Source: Parachryseolinea silvisoli (lineage in GTDB: Bacteria > Bacteroidota > Bacteroidia > Cytophagales > Cyclobacteriaceae). From it: a stretch of 64,000 nt of DNA. Of the stretch, positions 47,050 to 57,977 are shown one piece after another. The stretch lies in NCBI RefSeq assembly GCF_021190955.1, contig NZ_JAIOAO010000005.1:124001-188000 (forward strand), in the 5' to 3' direction. The stretch's first letter is position 1; each line of letters opens with the position of its first letter. The position numbers and the translations under genes are program-made. The notes beneath the pieces are model-generated. The model was not told the origin of the DNA and ran no database searches. It worked only from the letters and a program-made list of their open reading frames with translations.

Positions 47050-48003
47050 TTATGAGATTAGCTGTGTATACCGGTCGACAAAGCGGCGGAAGCCCGATTG
47101 TTTTTTCATGAGGAATCCGAACAGCGTGATCCCTGCGGCGGCTGTTGCGATGCCGGCGAGGACGTCTAGTATATAATGATGGCTGGTGTAGACGGCGGCG
47201 AACCAGATGCCGACGGTAATGATGCCAAAGGCCAGGGTACCCCAGCGTAGGCGTGCTTTCCAGGCGGTATACCACACGATCAGCGGATAGGCGGAGTGTA
47301 ACGAGGGCATAGCAGCGAAAACGTTAGAGCCTTTTTGATACAGGGACTGGAAGATCGTTACGCCAAAGAACTGATCGAACCGGATCAAGCCGGCCGTGTT
47401 GCCCGGTGTGCCCGCAATGAAATCAAAGCCGTGAAGCGCTACGTACCACGGCGGCGCTGCCGGATAGAGATAATACACGACGAAGCCCAATAGGTTTACC
47501 AGCAGGAATGTGAGCAGGAATTGCAGGAAGCGGCTGCGGTCTTTAAAGAACAGGTAGGCGGCAAAGCCCAGTGGTACGGGAATCCAGCACAGGTAAAAGA
47601 ACCCCGTGAGCACGTCTACCCAGGCGGCGCTATGAACCTGAAAATATTCGTTGGGTGTTACGAGCTTGCCGTCTTGCACCATACCGAAGATGGCGCGTTC
47701 GGTCTCGTACAGGTCTTGTATGTGTACCGCGTTATAAACATAGTTGGGAAACGCCTTCATGTAGTCGTACAGAATCCAGAAGACAATAAAGACCGAGAAA
47801 CCCAGGATAAATTTGCGGGTGATGCGCGATGCCAGGTACAATGTGTCGAATATCAACACGAGGAACAGCTGGTCGGTTTTAAAGCCGATGAGCAATGCCG
47901 ATAGCCCCAGGTATGACACAGACACCACGGCGGCCACGAGCACGTCGCGCCACGAGATCCAGCGGGTTACCGGAAGGATGGGCAAGTCCAAACTATTTTT
48001 CAA
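47050..48003 (-). CDS. PAP2-family inositol phosphorylceramide synthase (Aur1-like)
   Basis: This 317-residue polytopic protein has about six helices. The PAP2 motifs are AMPSLHSAYPL (second motif) and YTSHHYILDVLAG (third motif), with active-site histidines in both, and a YPAAPPWY loop before them. Aur1-type enzymes of Bacteroidota transfer inositol phosphate from phosphatidylinositol to ceramide, and this is the last gene of an operon holding all partners. The start appears to be TTG at 48003, because no ATG exists before the first helices. It overlaps the hydroxylase gene by 11 bp, which suggests translational coupling. Function is strongly supported by context. Confidence 0.85.
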   Translation of the reverse strand: MKNSLDLPILPVTRWISWRDVLVAAVVSVSYLGLSALLIGFKTDQLFLVLIFDTLYLASRITRKFILGFSVFIVFWILYDYMKAFPNYVYNAVHIQDLYETERAIFGMVQDGKLVTPNEYFQVHSAAWVDVLTGFFYLCWIPVPLGFAAYLFFKDRSRFLQFLLTFLLVNLLGFVVYYLYPAAPPWYVALHGFDFIAGTPGNTAGLIRFDQFFGVTIFQSLYQKGSNVFAAMPSLHSAYPLIVWYTAWKARLRWGTLAFGIITVGIWFAAVYTSHHYILDVLAGIATAAAGITLFGFLMKKQSGFRRFVDRYTQLIS

Positions 48004-48610
48004 AGTCGGAACGGAATATTTTGTCCCACAAGGCTGAGCTTACGCCATAACCTTTTGTGGGGTCGGCGTAGTGATGCTGCATGTGGTGGTGTTTCAGCTT
48101 CTTCCAGAAGCGGTTGTTAAACTTGCTGTGGTGAAGTGCATAGTGCGATATGTCATACACCAGATAGCCAGCCAGAAAGGTTGCAAAGAACCCATCCATG
48201 TAGGCCACGGGAAGCAGCGCATGAAACAGGAAATAAAAACCGGTGGCCAGTGGAATGCTCATGGAAGGCGGCAATACCAGGCGCATGGCGTCGTTCGGAT
48301 AATCGTGGTGCACACCGTGGAACAGGAAGTGCAGTCTTTTTCCGACGGCCGATTTGGGCTCAAAGTGAAATACGAACCGGTGCATAATATACTCCGTCAG
48401 CGTCCATGCCAGTAGCCCCAGGATACAGCTGGCAATAAACGTGAGCACGTTTGTGTACGTGACAGCCAATGCCCTATACATAAAATAGGTTATGATGGGA
48501 ATGAAGAGGATCAGCGGCACGCTATAGTGTACCTTTGAAAGGCTCTCCAGGAATCCACTTCTGAAGATTCGGATCGATTCTGTACTGTTTGAAATAAAGT
48601 TCTTCTTCAT
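47993..48610 (-). CDS. Fatty acid 2-hydroxylase (Scs7/FA2H-like, sterol desaturase superfamily)
   Basis: The 205-residue membrane di-iron enzyme has histidine clusters in the order and wording of yeast Scs7 and animal FA2H: TEYIMHRFVFH (His77, His82), HFLFHGVHHDYPND (His94, His98, His101, His102), SHYALHH (His156, His160, His161) and HHHMQHH (174-180). RLVLPPSMSIPLA follows the second cluster, as in Scs7. These enzymes hydroxylate the alpha carbon of the N-acyl chain of ceramide. It lacks the cytochrome b5 domain of the yeast protein. Position in the ceramide/inositol operon supports 2-hydroxy-ceramide formation. It starts 4 bp after DUF4833. Confidence 0.88.
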   Translation of the reverse strand: MKKNFISNSTESIRIFRSGFLESLSKVHYSVPLILFIPIITYFMYRALAVTYTNVLTFIASCILGLLAWTLTEYIMHRFVFHFEPKSAVGKRLHFLFHGVHHDYPNDAMRLVLPPSMSIPLATGFYFLFHALLPVAYMDGFFATFLAGYLVYDISHYALHHSKFNNRFWKKLKHHHMQHHYADPTKGYGVSSALWDKIFRSDFEK

Positions 48611-48614
48611 AACA

Positions 48615-55654: not shown

Positions 55655-56772
55655 AACGCTTTCTCGAATATTCTGTACTTTTTGTACGGAACACCCTTGA
55701 TATTCAGCAGCGCGTTATTCATCGGGGCGTTGTCTTCCAGCACCCACGACGCTTCTGCCCGTGTCAATTTCTTTTTGCGATACGCCTCGATAATGCTGGC
55801 ATAGAAGCACGCCTCGATGCCAAGCTTGCGGAAGCCTTCTTCCACCCCGAGTGTGATGACCCGGATACCTTTCACTTTCTTTAACCCAAACAGCAGCTTG
55901 AAAAGCCCGAAAGGCAACAGCCGGCCACGTTTTATATTAATCAACACTTCGTTGATGTCGGGTATGGCCAGTGCAAAACCGATGGCACGTCCATCTTTCT
56001 CGGCTACCAGGCAGAAGTCTGTGTCGAGGATCATTTTCATGTCCTTGGCCATGTAGTCGAACTCGGGCTCGGTCATGGGCACAAACCCGAGGTTTTTGTC
56101 CCACGCATTGTTATATACACCCCGGATCTGTCGTACTTCTTCTTTGAAGTTTTTGATGTTTACCGGACGGATGGTAATGCCTTTTAGTTTCAGACGATTG
56201 AGCATCGTCTCTTTTACCCGCACAGAGCGGTCGTCGTAGCCGTCGGCGCCAAAGCGGTATGCAAGGATGTCGACCTTCTTGCCGAATCCGGCCGCTTCCA
56301 CAAGCGCGTTGTAGTACGGTTTGTTATAGGTCATCATCGCGGCGGGCGGCGAGTCAAAGCCTTCCACCAGCAAGCCACACGTTTCGTTGGTGGAGAAGTT
56401 GACCGGCCCAATGGAGGTGGTGGCACCTTGCTGGCGCAGCCATGCATCCGCCTGCTCAAAAAGCAGCCGGACTACTTCGGTGTCGTTCACCACGTCGAAG
56501 AAGCCAAAGAAGCCGTCGCGGGTATTGTTAAAGGTATTGTGATTTTTATTGAGGATGGCGGCGATGCGCCCTACAATCTTGTCGCCGTCGTACGCCAGGA
56601 AAAGCTGTATGGAAGAATGTTCGTGAAAAGGATGTTTCCCAGGGGTAAGCAAATCGCGTTGGGCGATAAACAGCTCGGGCACATAACACGGATCATTTTT
56701 ATACAGATCGTGCGGAAAATCAATGAACGCCTTCAGCTGGTCTTTGCCACTGACGGAAACAATACGCTTCAT
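55651..56772 (-). CDS. GNAT-like bacterial ceramide synthase (bCerS-like)
   Basis: The 373-residue cytoplasmic protein has a GNAT-type fold in two halves: an N-terminal domain with [18 protein letters not shown] and a C-terminal one with [18 protein letters not shown] and [58 protein letters not shown] is the conserved centre. It resembles the N-acyltransferase placed beside serine palmitoyltransferase in bacterial sphingolipid loci, where it acylates the long-chain base. Its start overlaps the SPT stop by 4 bp (ATGA) and its stop overlaps the next start in the same way. The function is supported by context; a direct similarity search would settle it. Confidence 0.82.
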
Positions 56773-57977
56773 TTAATACGTTCTTTTAGTTCAAGCACGC
56801 CTACCTGACGGAATACACGTGCTATTTTCTCCACTGCTTCTTCGATCTGACCGAACGTATGCGTTGCCATCAGCGAAAAGCGCAGCAGGGAAGCGTCCGA
56901 TGGAACGGCCGGCGATACGACCGGGTTCACAAAGACGCCTTGTTGTTGCAGCAGGCTGGTGACGGCAAATGTTTTTGCGTTATCACGCACGTAGATGGGC
57001 AGGATCGGGCTTTCGGTAGCGCCGATGTCAAACCCTTCTTCTTGTAAAAGGTTCATGGCATACCGCGTGTTCCGCCACAGATTTTCCATATGTTCGGGCT
57101 CGGTCTCGATGATATCCAGTGCCGCCAGGGTGCTGGCCGCCGAGGCGGGCGTCATGCTGGCGCTGAAGATCAGTGAACGCGCGTGGTGTTTCAGATAGTC
57201 GATGGTATCGGCGTCACTCGCAACAAAGCCGCCGAGTGAGGCGAGCGATTTGCTAAAGGTGCCCGTAATAATGTCAACCTTGTCGTCGAGGCCAAAGTGT
57301 GAGGCTGTACCTGCACCTTTCACACCAATCACGCCCAGGCTGTGCGCATCGTCGACCACGACGGTGGCGCCGAACTGATCGGCAATGGCAATGATCTCGG
57401 GCAGCTTGGCAATGTCACCCTCCATACTGAAGATGCCGTCGACAGCTATGACCTTAATGGACTCTTCGGGCAGCACGCTGAGGCGACGGGCGAGATCGGC
57501 CATGTCGTTGTGAGCATATTTAATGACCCGTGAGAACGACAGGCGCGTGCCGTCGTAGATCGATGCGTGGTCGTATTCGTCGAGAATGAGGTAGTCGTTG
57601 CGGCCGGTGAAGCTCGACATCACCCCCAGGTTCACCTGGAAGCCTGTGCTAAAGATGAGGGCTGCCTGCTTGCCGGTGAAGGCTGCGATGCGGTCTTCAA
57701 GCTCTACGTGTATGTCAAGTGTGCCGTTAAGGAAACGCGAGCCGGCACAACCGGTACCATATTTTTCGACAGCTTTATGAGCAGCTTCTTTAATCTTGGG
57801 ATGGTTGGTCAGGCCGAGGTAGGAGTTCGACCCGAACATCAGTACACGCTTGCCTTGGATCATCACCTCTGTATCCTGGGCCGATTCAATGGGCCTGAAA
57901 TAGGGATAGATGCCCTGCGCCCGCGCTTCTTTCGCCGCAGTATAGGCAGCAATTCGTGCTTGTAGTGGTTTACTCAT
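56769..57977 (-). CDS. spt: Serine palmitoyltransferase (alpha-oxoamine synthase)
   Basis: The 402-residue PLP enzyme starts [20 protein letters not shown] and continues [15 protein letters not shown], characteristic of Bacteroidota SPT. It has [18 protein letters not shown] (His137, cofactor stacking), [10 protein letters not shown] (Asp209, His212) and [11 protein letters not shown] with PLP-binding Lys243. It condenses serine and an acyl-CoA or acyl-ACP to 3-ketosphinganine, the committed step of sphingolipid synthesis. It is the first gene of the eleven-gene minus-strand operon. Related enzymes (KBL, BioF) are less likely because of the YPYFRPIE segment and the neighbours. Confidence 0.93.

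What the first reader, a model, noticed from the sequence alone, without database searches (positions are those of the whole stretch)
47050..57977. Eleven-gene operon joining complete ceramide and inositol-phosphoceramide synthesis
Seen: eleven minus-strand genes with gaps of 35 bp or less, ATGA overlaps between the first three and an 11-bp overlap at the end. Known: SPT, GNAT-type ceramide synthase and CerR make bacterial ceramide; MIPS, PgpA-type phosphatase, CDP-alcohol transferase and Aur1-like PAP2 protein form the inositol-lipid cluster known from Bacteroides thetaiotaomicron (BT_1522-BT_1526 region). Inference: here both pathways are one transcription unit, with hydroxylase, GtrA, DUF4833 and DUF5686 as further members, describing a full make-modify-export unit.
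Basis: partly seen in the sequence, partly recalled or inferred. Interest (0 to 1): 0.85.

Follow-up and report, generated by a model that had tools for sequence, protein, structure and literature searches.

The report
Repressor-linked operon for inositol sphingolipids
One row of eleven genes in a bacterium carries what looks like the whole recipe for an inositol-bearing, fungus-like membrane sphingolipid, probably with its own on/off switch, and the same row is found in many related bacteria.

Summary
In detail: eleven minus-strand genes (57977-47050), gaps -11 to 35 bp. Homology supports SPT, N-acyltransferase, CerR-type reductase, MIPS, PgpA-type phosphatase, PIP synthase (NF052561 passed), Scs7-type 2-hydroxylase and Aur1-like synthase. 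The same order recurs in 11 of 26 MIPS-bearing genomes of its family, 2 of 34 other class-sample MIPS loci and 23 of 80 named loci (14 of these with genes 8 and 9 fused). The papers I saw do not describe it.

Additions. (1) A TetR gene (46154-46756) recurs beside the cluster; a ~30-bp palindrome model trained on other families finds two sites before SPT and a weaker one before tetR, and the genome holds no further site within two mismatches. (2) DUF4833 is fused to PIP synthase in 20 of 80 named loci; its predicted all-beta fold has no good solved match. (3) The hydroxylase follows SPT: 20 of 20 versus 0 of 10 clusters.

"Export" is not shown; SDR and PgpA are missing from several clusters; the Aur1-like protein scores below its curated cut-off; there are no lipid or transcript data. 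A new variant of a known kind.

The parts
56769..57977 (-). serine palmitoyltransferase (402 aa), first gene
   Evidence: NF047600 737.8 bits vs cut-off 640; best PDB match a serine palmitoyltransferase, 1.8e-181, vs cysteate-C-fatty acyltransferase 4.3e-72; only match over the cut-off in own genome
55651..56772 (-). tandem-GNAT N-acyltransferase, probable bacterial ceramide synthase
   Evidence: Pfam Acetyltransf_1 23.3 vs cut-off 20.7; model pLDDT 88.9 matches tandem GNATs; 35% identical over full length to an acyltransferase in a Roseomonas SPT cluster; next to an SPT relative in Rubrobacter and Aureispira
54671..55654 (-). epimerase-type SDR, probable 3-oxo-ceramide reductase (CerR type)
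   Evidence: PF01370 2.2e-36; GxxGxxG and YxxxK present; 35% identical to the third gene of a Rubrobacter SPT-GNAT-SDR row
53310..54635 (-). myo-inositol-3-phosphate synthase (MIPS)
   Evidence: PF07994/PF01658; best PDB match 7nwr, inositol-3-phosphate synthase, 1.5e-190 for the profile; one PF01658 match in genome
52859..53305 (-). PgpA-type phosphatase, probable PIP phosphatase
   Evidence: PF04608 8.7e-37; only PF04608 match of the genome
52482..52853 (-). GtrA-type small membrane protein (123 aa; start trimmed from mechanical ORF)
   Evidence: PF04138 3.1e-15; start chosen
49930..52473 (-). DUF5686 protein with CarboxypepD_reg-like N-terminus, probable outer-membrane protein
   Evidence: PF18939 5.7e-58, PF13715 5.2e-21; location inferred
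49180..49926 (-). CDP-alcohol phosphatidyltransferase, phosphatidylinositol-phosphate synthase
   Evidence: NF052561 (PIPSynBT1523) 408.6 vs cut-off 350; full catalytic motif at residue 92
48615..49169 (-). DUF4833 protein, probably periplasmic
   Evidence: PF16117 5.1e-43; N-terminus reads like a short signal segment by eye (no segment over the hydropathy limit); all-beta model pLDDT 90.7
47993..48610 (-). fatty acid/ceramide 2-hydroxylase (Scs7 type)
   Evidence: PF04116; yeast SCS7 structure 4zr1 5.7e-37 with aligned His boxes
47050..48003 (-). Aur1-like PAP2 protein, probable inositol phosphoceramide synthase (TTG start)
   Evidence: PF14378; yeast AUR1 structure 9vj3 2.1e-13; NF052609 343 bits, below its 480 cut-off; HSAYP and HHYILD
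46154..46756 (+). TetR-type regulator, recurrent neighbour of the cluster
   Evidence: PF00440 5.3e-13; relatives beside the cluster; next best TetR of the genome 40.7 vs 421 bits
58166..58195 (-). predicted operator upstream of SPT
   Evidence: weight matrix trained on other families: 27.4
58134..58163 (-). predicted operator upstream of SPT
   Evidence: weight matrix 30.8
46119..46148 (+). predicted operator upstream of tetR (weaker)
   Evidence: weight matrix 17.7; 3 of 150 random sequences of window length reach 17

Best explanation
The row is one operon that makes 2-hydroxylated inositol phosphoceramide from primary metabolites, controlled by a dedicated TetR repressor. SPT joins serine and an acyl thioester; the GNAT N-acylates the product; the SDR reduces the 3-keto group, giving dihydroceramide; the Scs7-type enzyme 2-hydroxylates the N-acyl chain with O2. 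In parallel MIPS makes inositol-3-phosphate, the CDP-alcohol enzyme couples it to CDP-DAG (PIP), the PgpA-type enzyme makes PI, and the Aur1-like enzyme moves phosphoinositol from PI to ceramide. GtrA, DUF5686 and DUF4833 assist around or after headgroup transfer, DUF4833 on the periplasmic side. TetR binds palindromes at the operon and tetR promoters. Shown by sequence: gene identity, order, conservation, predicted sites. Inferred: every reaction in this organism, one transcript, TetR binding, repression rather than activation, and its ligand (a long-chain acyl-CoA would fit, as the C-terminus weakly resembles the YsiA type, below the Pfam cut-off).
For: Family assignments with two curated NCBI cut-offs passed; solved relatives; gaps; order conserved across families and orders; median gaps of -4 to 35 bp at the ten joints (starts estimated); single MIPS, PgpA and Aur1-like matches and one SPT over the cut-off in the genome; hydroxylase with SPT 20/20 vs 0/10 and 40/44 vs 1/15; SPT-GNAT-SDR row also in Rubrobacter; TetR and predicted operators; mutant work on BT1522-1526 in B. 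thetaiotaomicron (PMC9246714, PMC8791184, passages).
Against: The Aur1-like protein is below the NF052609 cut-off. SDR and/or PgpA are absent by these models from several otherwise similar clusters. In PMC9246714 section 10 Flectobacillus major is the one species whose lipids did not agree with its genomic prediction; I read this as predicted but not seen, the passage does not say the direction. Caulobacter CerR is periplasmic (PMC11087976 passages), whereas this SDR starts directly with its nucleotide-binding motif. No full promoter pattern was found, and generic promoter and terminator hits do not clearly exceed shuffles. The tetR site alone is weak. Most Sphingobacteriaceae-type loci lack the TetR and sites. 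No RNA or lipid data.
Confidence: 0.8

Rival explanations
1. Two neighbouring but separately expressed units: a ceramide operon (SPT-GNAT-SDR, 57977-54671) and an inositol-lipid operon (MIPS to Aur1-like, 54635-47050), joined only by chromosomal clustering.
For: The largest gap (35 bp) lies between SDR and MIPS, and this joint has the longest median gap of the ten (35 bp, range 11-238). Fifteen of 59 named inositol clusters lack SPT in the stretch (one, L157, is on an 8.2-kb contig that begins at the SDR), so the halves can live apart.
Against: The SDR-MIPS gap is at most 60 bp in 49 of 65 cases; the order is kept across families; in this window sites of the operator model lie only before SPT and tetR; the hydroxylase, which goes with SPT, lies inside the inositol half.
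Confidence: 0.12
2. The SPT-like enzyme makes another amino-lipid base (sulfonolipid/capnine) and the Aur1-like enzyme works on that or on glycerolipid.
For: Sulfonolipids occur in Bacteroidetes (PMC9304779, start of abstract in a listing), and cysteate-C-fatty acyltransferase is a relative.
Against: SPT equivalog cut-off passed by about 98 bits; 606 bits to solved SPT against 246 to solved cysteate-C-fatty acyltransferase.
Confidence: 0.05
3. The main product is phosphatidylinositol (or an inositol-anchored glycan), with sphingolipid a side branch.
For: GtrA-family proteins are involved in surface polysaccharide synthesis, and inositol is a component of the B. thetaiotaomicron capsule (PMC9246714, passages).
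Against: The ceramide genes and a ceramide-type hydroxylase are in the same row, and the Aur1-like gene is the last cluster gene in nearly all named loci that have it.
Confidence: 0.1

Closest known systems
Bacteroides thetaiotaomicron BT_1522-BT_1526 inositol lipid cluster (with neighbour BT_1527)
   Same: MIPS, PgpA-type PIP phosphatase, GtrA, PIP synthase and Aur1-like synthase in the same order; a carboxypeptidase-regulatory-like protein nearby (PMC9246714, passages and section 10)
   Different: There SPT (BT_0870) and the 3-ketosphinganine reductase (BT_0972) lie elsewhere (PMC9246714, PMC9278070, passages); here the ceramide genes, a 2-hydroxylase, DUF5686 and DUF4833 are inside the row, and a TetR gene with predicted operators is linked
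Caulobacter-type ceramide genes (Spt, bCerS/CC_1154, CerR/CC_1164)
   Same: three-enzyme set; the GNAT is homologous to the acyltransferase of a Roseomonas SPT cluster, which I take as the same kind as CC_1154 (Caulobacter protein not compared)
   Different: no ACP or acyl-ACP synthetase gene in the row; reductase without an N-terminal signal; predicted headgroup is inositol phosphate
Yeast IPC route (Aur1, Scs7)
   Same: Aur1-like transferase and Scs7-like 2-hydroxylase
   Different: bacterial-type acyltransferase and reductase; PIP route to PI; one gene row
B. vulgatus-type alternative inositol cluster (NTP transferase, CDP-alcohol enzyme, HAD; PMC9246714 section 10)
   Same: L071 looks like this type and holds a CDP-alcohol enzyme, HAD, LPG_synthase_TM, DUF5686 and DUF4833
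   Different: other headgroup chemistry; in L071 no MIPS, Aur1-like, PgpA or named NTP transferase gene was found in the stretch

Membership tests
BT_1522-1526-type inositol lipid cluster | MIPS, PIP synthase, PgpA-type phosphatase and Aur1-like protein together | tested here: met
BT_1522-1526-type inositol lipid cluster | PIP synthase passes NF052561 and has the DX2DGX2AR...GX3DX3D motif | tested here: met
   408.6 vs 350; motif at residue 92
BT_1522-1526-type inositol lipid cluster | PI-DHC synthase passes NF052609 | tested here: not met
   343 bits vs 480; filed only as Aur1-like, by yeast AUR1 match and motifs
BT_1522-1526-type inositol lipid cluster | makes PI and inositol phosphoceramide | not testable with these tools
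   needs lipid analysis
bacterial serine palmitoyltransferase | NF047600 curated cut-off | tested here: met
   737.8 vs 640
bacterial ceramide synthase (bCerS) | homology to a bCerS of tested function | tested here: inconclusive
   35% to the Roseomonas acyltransferase; the Caulobacter protein itself was not available
ceramide reductase CerR | epimerase-type SDR next to SPT and acyltransferase | tested here: met
   homology to Caulobacter CerR not tested
ceramide reductase CerR | periplasmic location as in Caulobacter | tested here: inconclusive
   no signal segment before the Rossmann motif; location not measured
Scs7/FA2H 2-hydroxylase | homology to and His boxes of Scs7 | tested here: met
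   5.7e-37 with aligned boxes
TetR-operator autoregulated system | TetR gene with a shared palindrome before the target and before itself | tested here: met
   the tetR site is weak; binding not tested

The most novel reading that the evidence does not exclude
A complete, self-contained inositol-sphingolipid operon, controlled by a dedicated lipid-sensing TetR repressor, is an old and widespread unit of non-gut Bacteroidota; DUF4833 is a previously unassigned periplasmic inositol-lipid factor (fused to PIP synthase in many genomes) with a fold not yet solved; and the bacteria switch the whole sphingolipid on and off with one signal.
Probability: 0.35. Interest if true: 0.7.

Novelty: new variant of a known kind. 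Interest (0 to 1): 0.55.

Why it matters
Sphingolipid genes of Bacteroidota are described as not close together on the genome (PMC11334938, passage; PMC9278070 notes that BT_0972 does not cluster with SPT). A single row holding all steps, its 2-hydroxylase and a linked regulator would let the pathway be moved, switched and dissected in one piece, gives DUF4833 a testable place in inositol-lipid biology, and offers a way to ask when environmental bacteria make these lipids.

Tried and rejected
Generic sigma-70 promoter and terminator scans: promoters 13 against 9.5 (sd 3.7) in shuffles, terminators 14 against 12.6 (sd 3.4). A strict Bacteroidota promoter pattern (recalled consensus TTTG ... TAnnTTTG) was found in none of eleven upstream regions, a relaxed one in one (L020); the -7 part alone occurs in 5 of 11, not in the window itself (four of the start positions there were set by hand).

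DUF4833 by sequence against solved structures (best E 0.11) and by fold (no Foldseek match with E <= 0.001): no function from there. In the class sample 23 of 45 fetched loci with DUF4833 have no MIPS, PIP synthase or Aur1-like partner by these models in the stretch (4 of the 50 matches were not fetched), so DUF4833 is not exclusive to this cluster; three of the 23 (L076, L079, L082) hold another CDP-alcohol enzyme and GtrA, and L071 an alternative-type cluster.

Mirror-tree correlations between the halves (mean 0.75 over 33 loci) cannot separate co-evolution from shared species history, so I do not use them as proof. The sulfonolipid reading was rejected on scores. Two Lysobacter MIPS loci were checked: no other cluster gene by these models in the stretch, and no SPT over the cut-off in those two genomes.
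Full report
WHAT IS THERE. The eleven reading frames are open and tightly packed on the minus strand from 57977 to 47050. Gaps are -4, -4, 35, 4, 5, 8, 3, 10, 4 and -11 bp. Two proteins pass curated NCBI cut-offs: SPT (737.8 vs 640 bits) and the PIP synthase model named after BT1523 (408.6 vs 350). The Aur1-like protein matches the phosphoinositol dihydroceramide synthase model with 343 bits, below its cut-off of 480, so I call it only Aur1-like; it does match solved yeast AUR1 (2.1e-13) and keeps HSAYP and HHYILD. 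The MIPS profile matches solved inositol-3-phosphate synthase 7nwr (1.5e-190). The hydroxylase matches solved yeast Scs7 (5.7e-37) with its histidine boxes aligned.

WHERE IT LIVES. The genome (7.9 Mb, 13 contigs) is held as G000; the window is C9:124001-188000. Three genomes of its family sample have contigs of the same length as records of Chryseosolibacter histidini, Chryseolinea lacunae and Chryseosolibacter indicus, so the family belongs to the order Cytophagales. MIPS, PgpA and the Aur1-like gene each have one match in the genome. The SPT model has six matches there; only the one in the row is listed, the other five lie below the end of the listing, at about 343 bits, far under the 640 cut-off.

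CONSERVATION. MIPS occurs in 26 of 196 family genomes, own included. All 26 loci were fetched, some on short contigs. Eleven have the eleven-gene order and a twelfth (L031) only a split DUF5686; in L018 the DUF4833-hydroxylase gap is about 880 bp. Nineteen of 26 have SPT and MIPS in the same stretch. In a class sample MIPS occurs in 34 of 395 genomes. Of the 34 loci other than the window's own, 2 have the exact order (L062, L065), 7 more have SPT, MIPS and a PIP synthase or Aur1-like gene, and 10 are inositol clusters without SPT in the stretch; L069 has SPT and inositol genes but its GNAT was not found and its MIPS match is weak and distant. At least seven of these 80 have contig lengths of loci already in the samples, so the sets must not be added. 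Carriers of the full order include Pontibacter, Rufibacter, Chitinophaga and Pedobacter; no Mucilaginibacter locus has all eleven by these models. Per joint, median gaps run from -4 to 35 bp, with some long exceptions (starts estimated).

THE CERAMIDE HALF. The GNAT is a predicted tandem GNAT (pLDDT 88.9; best solved match E 4.2e-15, TM about 0.6). It is 35% identical over its length to a protein of a Roseomonas plasmid cluster that holds an acyl carrier protein, an SPT relative, a diacylglycerol-kinase-type protein, a CDP-alcohol enzyme and a sterol-desaturase-type protein. Caulobacter uses an ACP, an acyl-ACP synthetase, N-acyltransferase CC_1154 and dehydrogenase CC_1164 (PMC11324152, passages); the likeness of the two clusters is my reading. 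SPT, GNAT and SDR lie in the window's order in Rubrobacter, an actinobacterium, whose SDR is 35% identical, and close together in Aureispira (33%). This supports, and does not prove, the ceramide synthase and reductase readings. One tension: Caulobacter CerR is periplasmic (PMC11087976, passages), while this SDR begins directly with its nucleotide-binding motif.

THE HYDROXYLASE GOES WITH SPT. Although it lies within the inositol half, the hydroxylase is present in 20 of 20 inositol clusters with SPT and 0 of 10 without among the family and class loci, and in 40 of 44 versus 1 of 15 among named loci (the exception L157 is on a contig that begins at the SDR). Related genomes are not independent, so the P values are too small. 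Of 12 of the 15 genomes whose named inositol cluster lacks SPT nearby, 7 have an SPT over the cut-off elsewhere and 5 do not.

DUF4833. The word is in no paper of the library. In the class sample DUF4833 and MIPS co-occur in 22 genomes where about 3.7 are expected (43 and 34 of 395). It is in one frame with the PIP synthase in 20 of 80 named loci and in L063, L069, L073 and L074; in the six sequences printed a hydrophobic stretch lies between the domains (by eye), which fits a periplasmic place. The model is all-beta (pLDDT 90.7) and no solved structure matches it well. It also occurs in a cluster of the alternative type (L071), so it seems not tied to one headgroup chemistry. Against exclusivity: 23 of 45 class-sample loci with DUF4833 show no MIPS, PIP synthase or Aur1-like gene by these models.

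THE REGULATOR. A TetR gene (46154-46756, +) ends 293 bp from the operon's 3' end, tail to tail. Relatives of 100 bits or more lie in the stretch in 11 of 26 family loci (own included) and 22 of 80 named loci: on the 3' side in this family (29 bp to 3.6 kb away), directly before MIPS in eight named loci of Chitinophagaceae type, before SPT in four Pontibacter loci, on the 3' side in others. The next best TetR in the own genome scores 40.7 bits against 421. Upstream lies a palindrome, about TTTGGACCnnAAAACGATTTTGGTCTAAAA. A weight matrix from 12 sites, none from the window's family, scores 30.8 and 27.4 at two places before SPT and 17.7 before tetR; the next unrelated score in the window is 2.2. 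In 150 random sequences of window length the maximum averages 8.3, is 21.0 at most, and reaches 17 in 3 and 27 in none (an earlier run of 40 is), so the tetR site alone is weak. In 166 loci (3.16 Mb, some duplicate genomes) 57 hits reach 17; 13 are in training loci; of 44 test hits 39 lie within 500 bp upstream of a cluster gene or tetR frame and 5 do not, or 31 of 35 distinct places when the two strands of one palindrome are merged. A pattern written from the three window sites finds these three, one more at three mismatches and nothing between in the whole genome, none for the reversed control. In 5 of 11 upstream regions the site overlaps or follows a -7-like box. None of the 25 Pedobacter and Mucilaginibacter loci asked has the TetR at 100 bits, and their one site hit, in L165, is not upstream of a cluster gene. 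The C-terminus weakly resembles TetR_C_4 (YsiA-like, 19.1 vs cut-off 21); acyl-CoA as the signal, and repression itself, are guesses.

LITERATURE. BT_1522-1526 has been studied by mutants (PMC9246714: outline, section 10, passages; PMC8791184: passages). SPT and the reductase lie elsewhere there, and the three ceramide genes are said not to be in close proximity in sphingolipid-producing Bacteroidota (PMC11334938, passage). Flectobacillus major was the stated exception to agreement between genome and lipids (PMC9246714 section 10). Ten searches, several with capped listings, showed no paper describing the joined operon or a TetR controlling it; the library lacks most subscription journals and all preprints, and the primary Caulobacter ceramide paper was not held.

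VERDICT. A real, widespread gene row whose enzymes are known kinds; apparently new are the joined arrangement, the linked regulator with predicted operators, and the placement of DUF4833. Export is not shown.

Noticed in passing
L145 and L158 (Lysobacter changpingensis, Lysobacter arvi), 10001-11323: MIPS 74-75% identical to the window's in two gammaproteobacterial records, without other cluster genes in the stretch; a neighbour in L145 is a polysaccharide pyruvyl transferase. Suggests transfer of MIPS alone.
   Followed up: partly
L014, L023, L029, L032 (one genus of the same family): A second arrangement, MIPS then a divergent SPT, SDR and GNAT, without the PIP synthase/Aur1-like row in the stretch.
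   Followed up: no
L076, L079, L082 (L092 in part): DUF4833 beside a different CDP-alcohol enzyme, GtrA, a PhyH-type oxygenase and a short-chain dehydrogenase: perhaps another phospho-headgroup lipid cluster.
   Followed up: partly
L024:17885-19900: The TetR relative (36%) is followed by what reads by eye like an efflux adaptor and transporter, with a palindrome before them, so this regulator family may also control pumps.
   Followed up: partly
L009:1856, L010:17873: Strong palindrome just after the 3' end of tetR, not before a cluster gene.
   Followed up: no
L031:5251-7694: DUF5686 split into two frames on a short contig; sequencing error or a broken gene.
   Followed up: no
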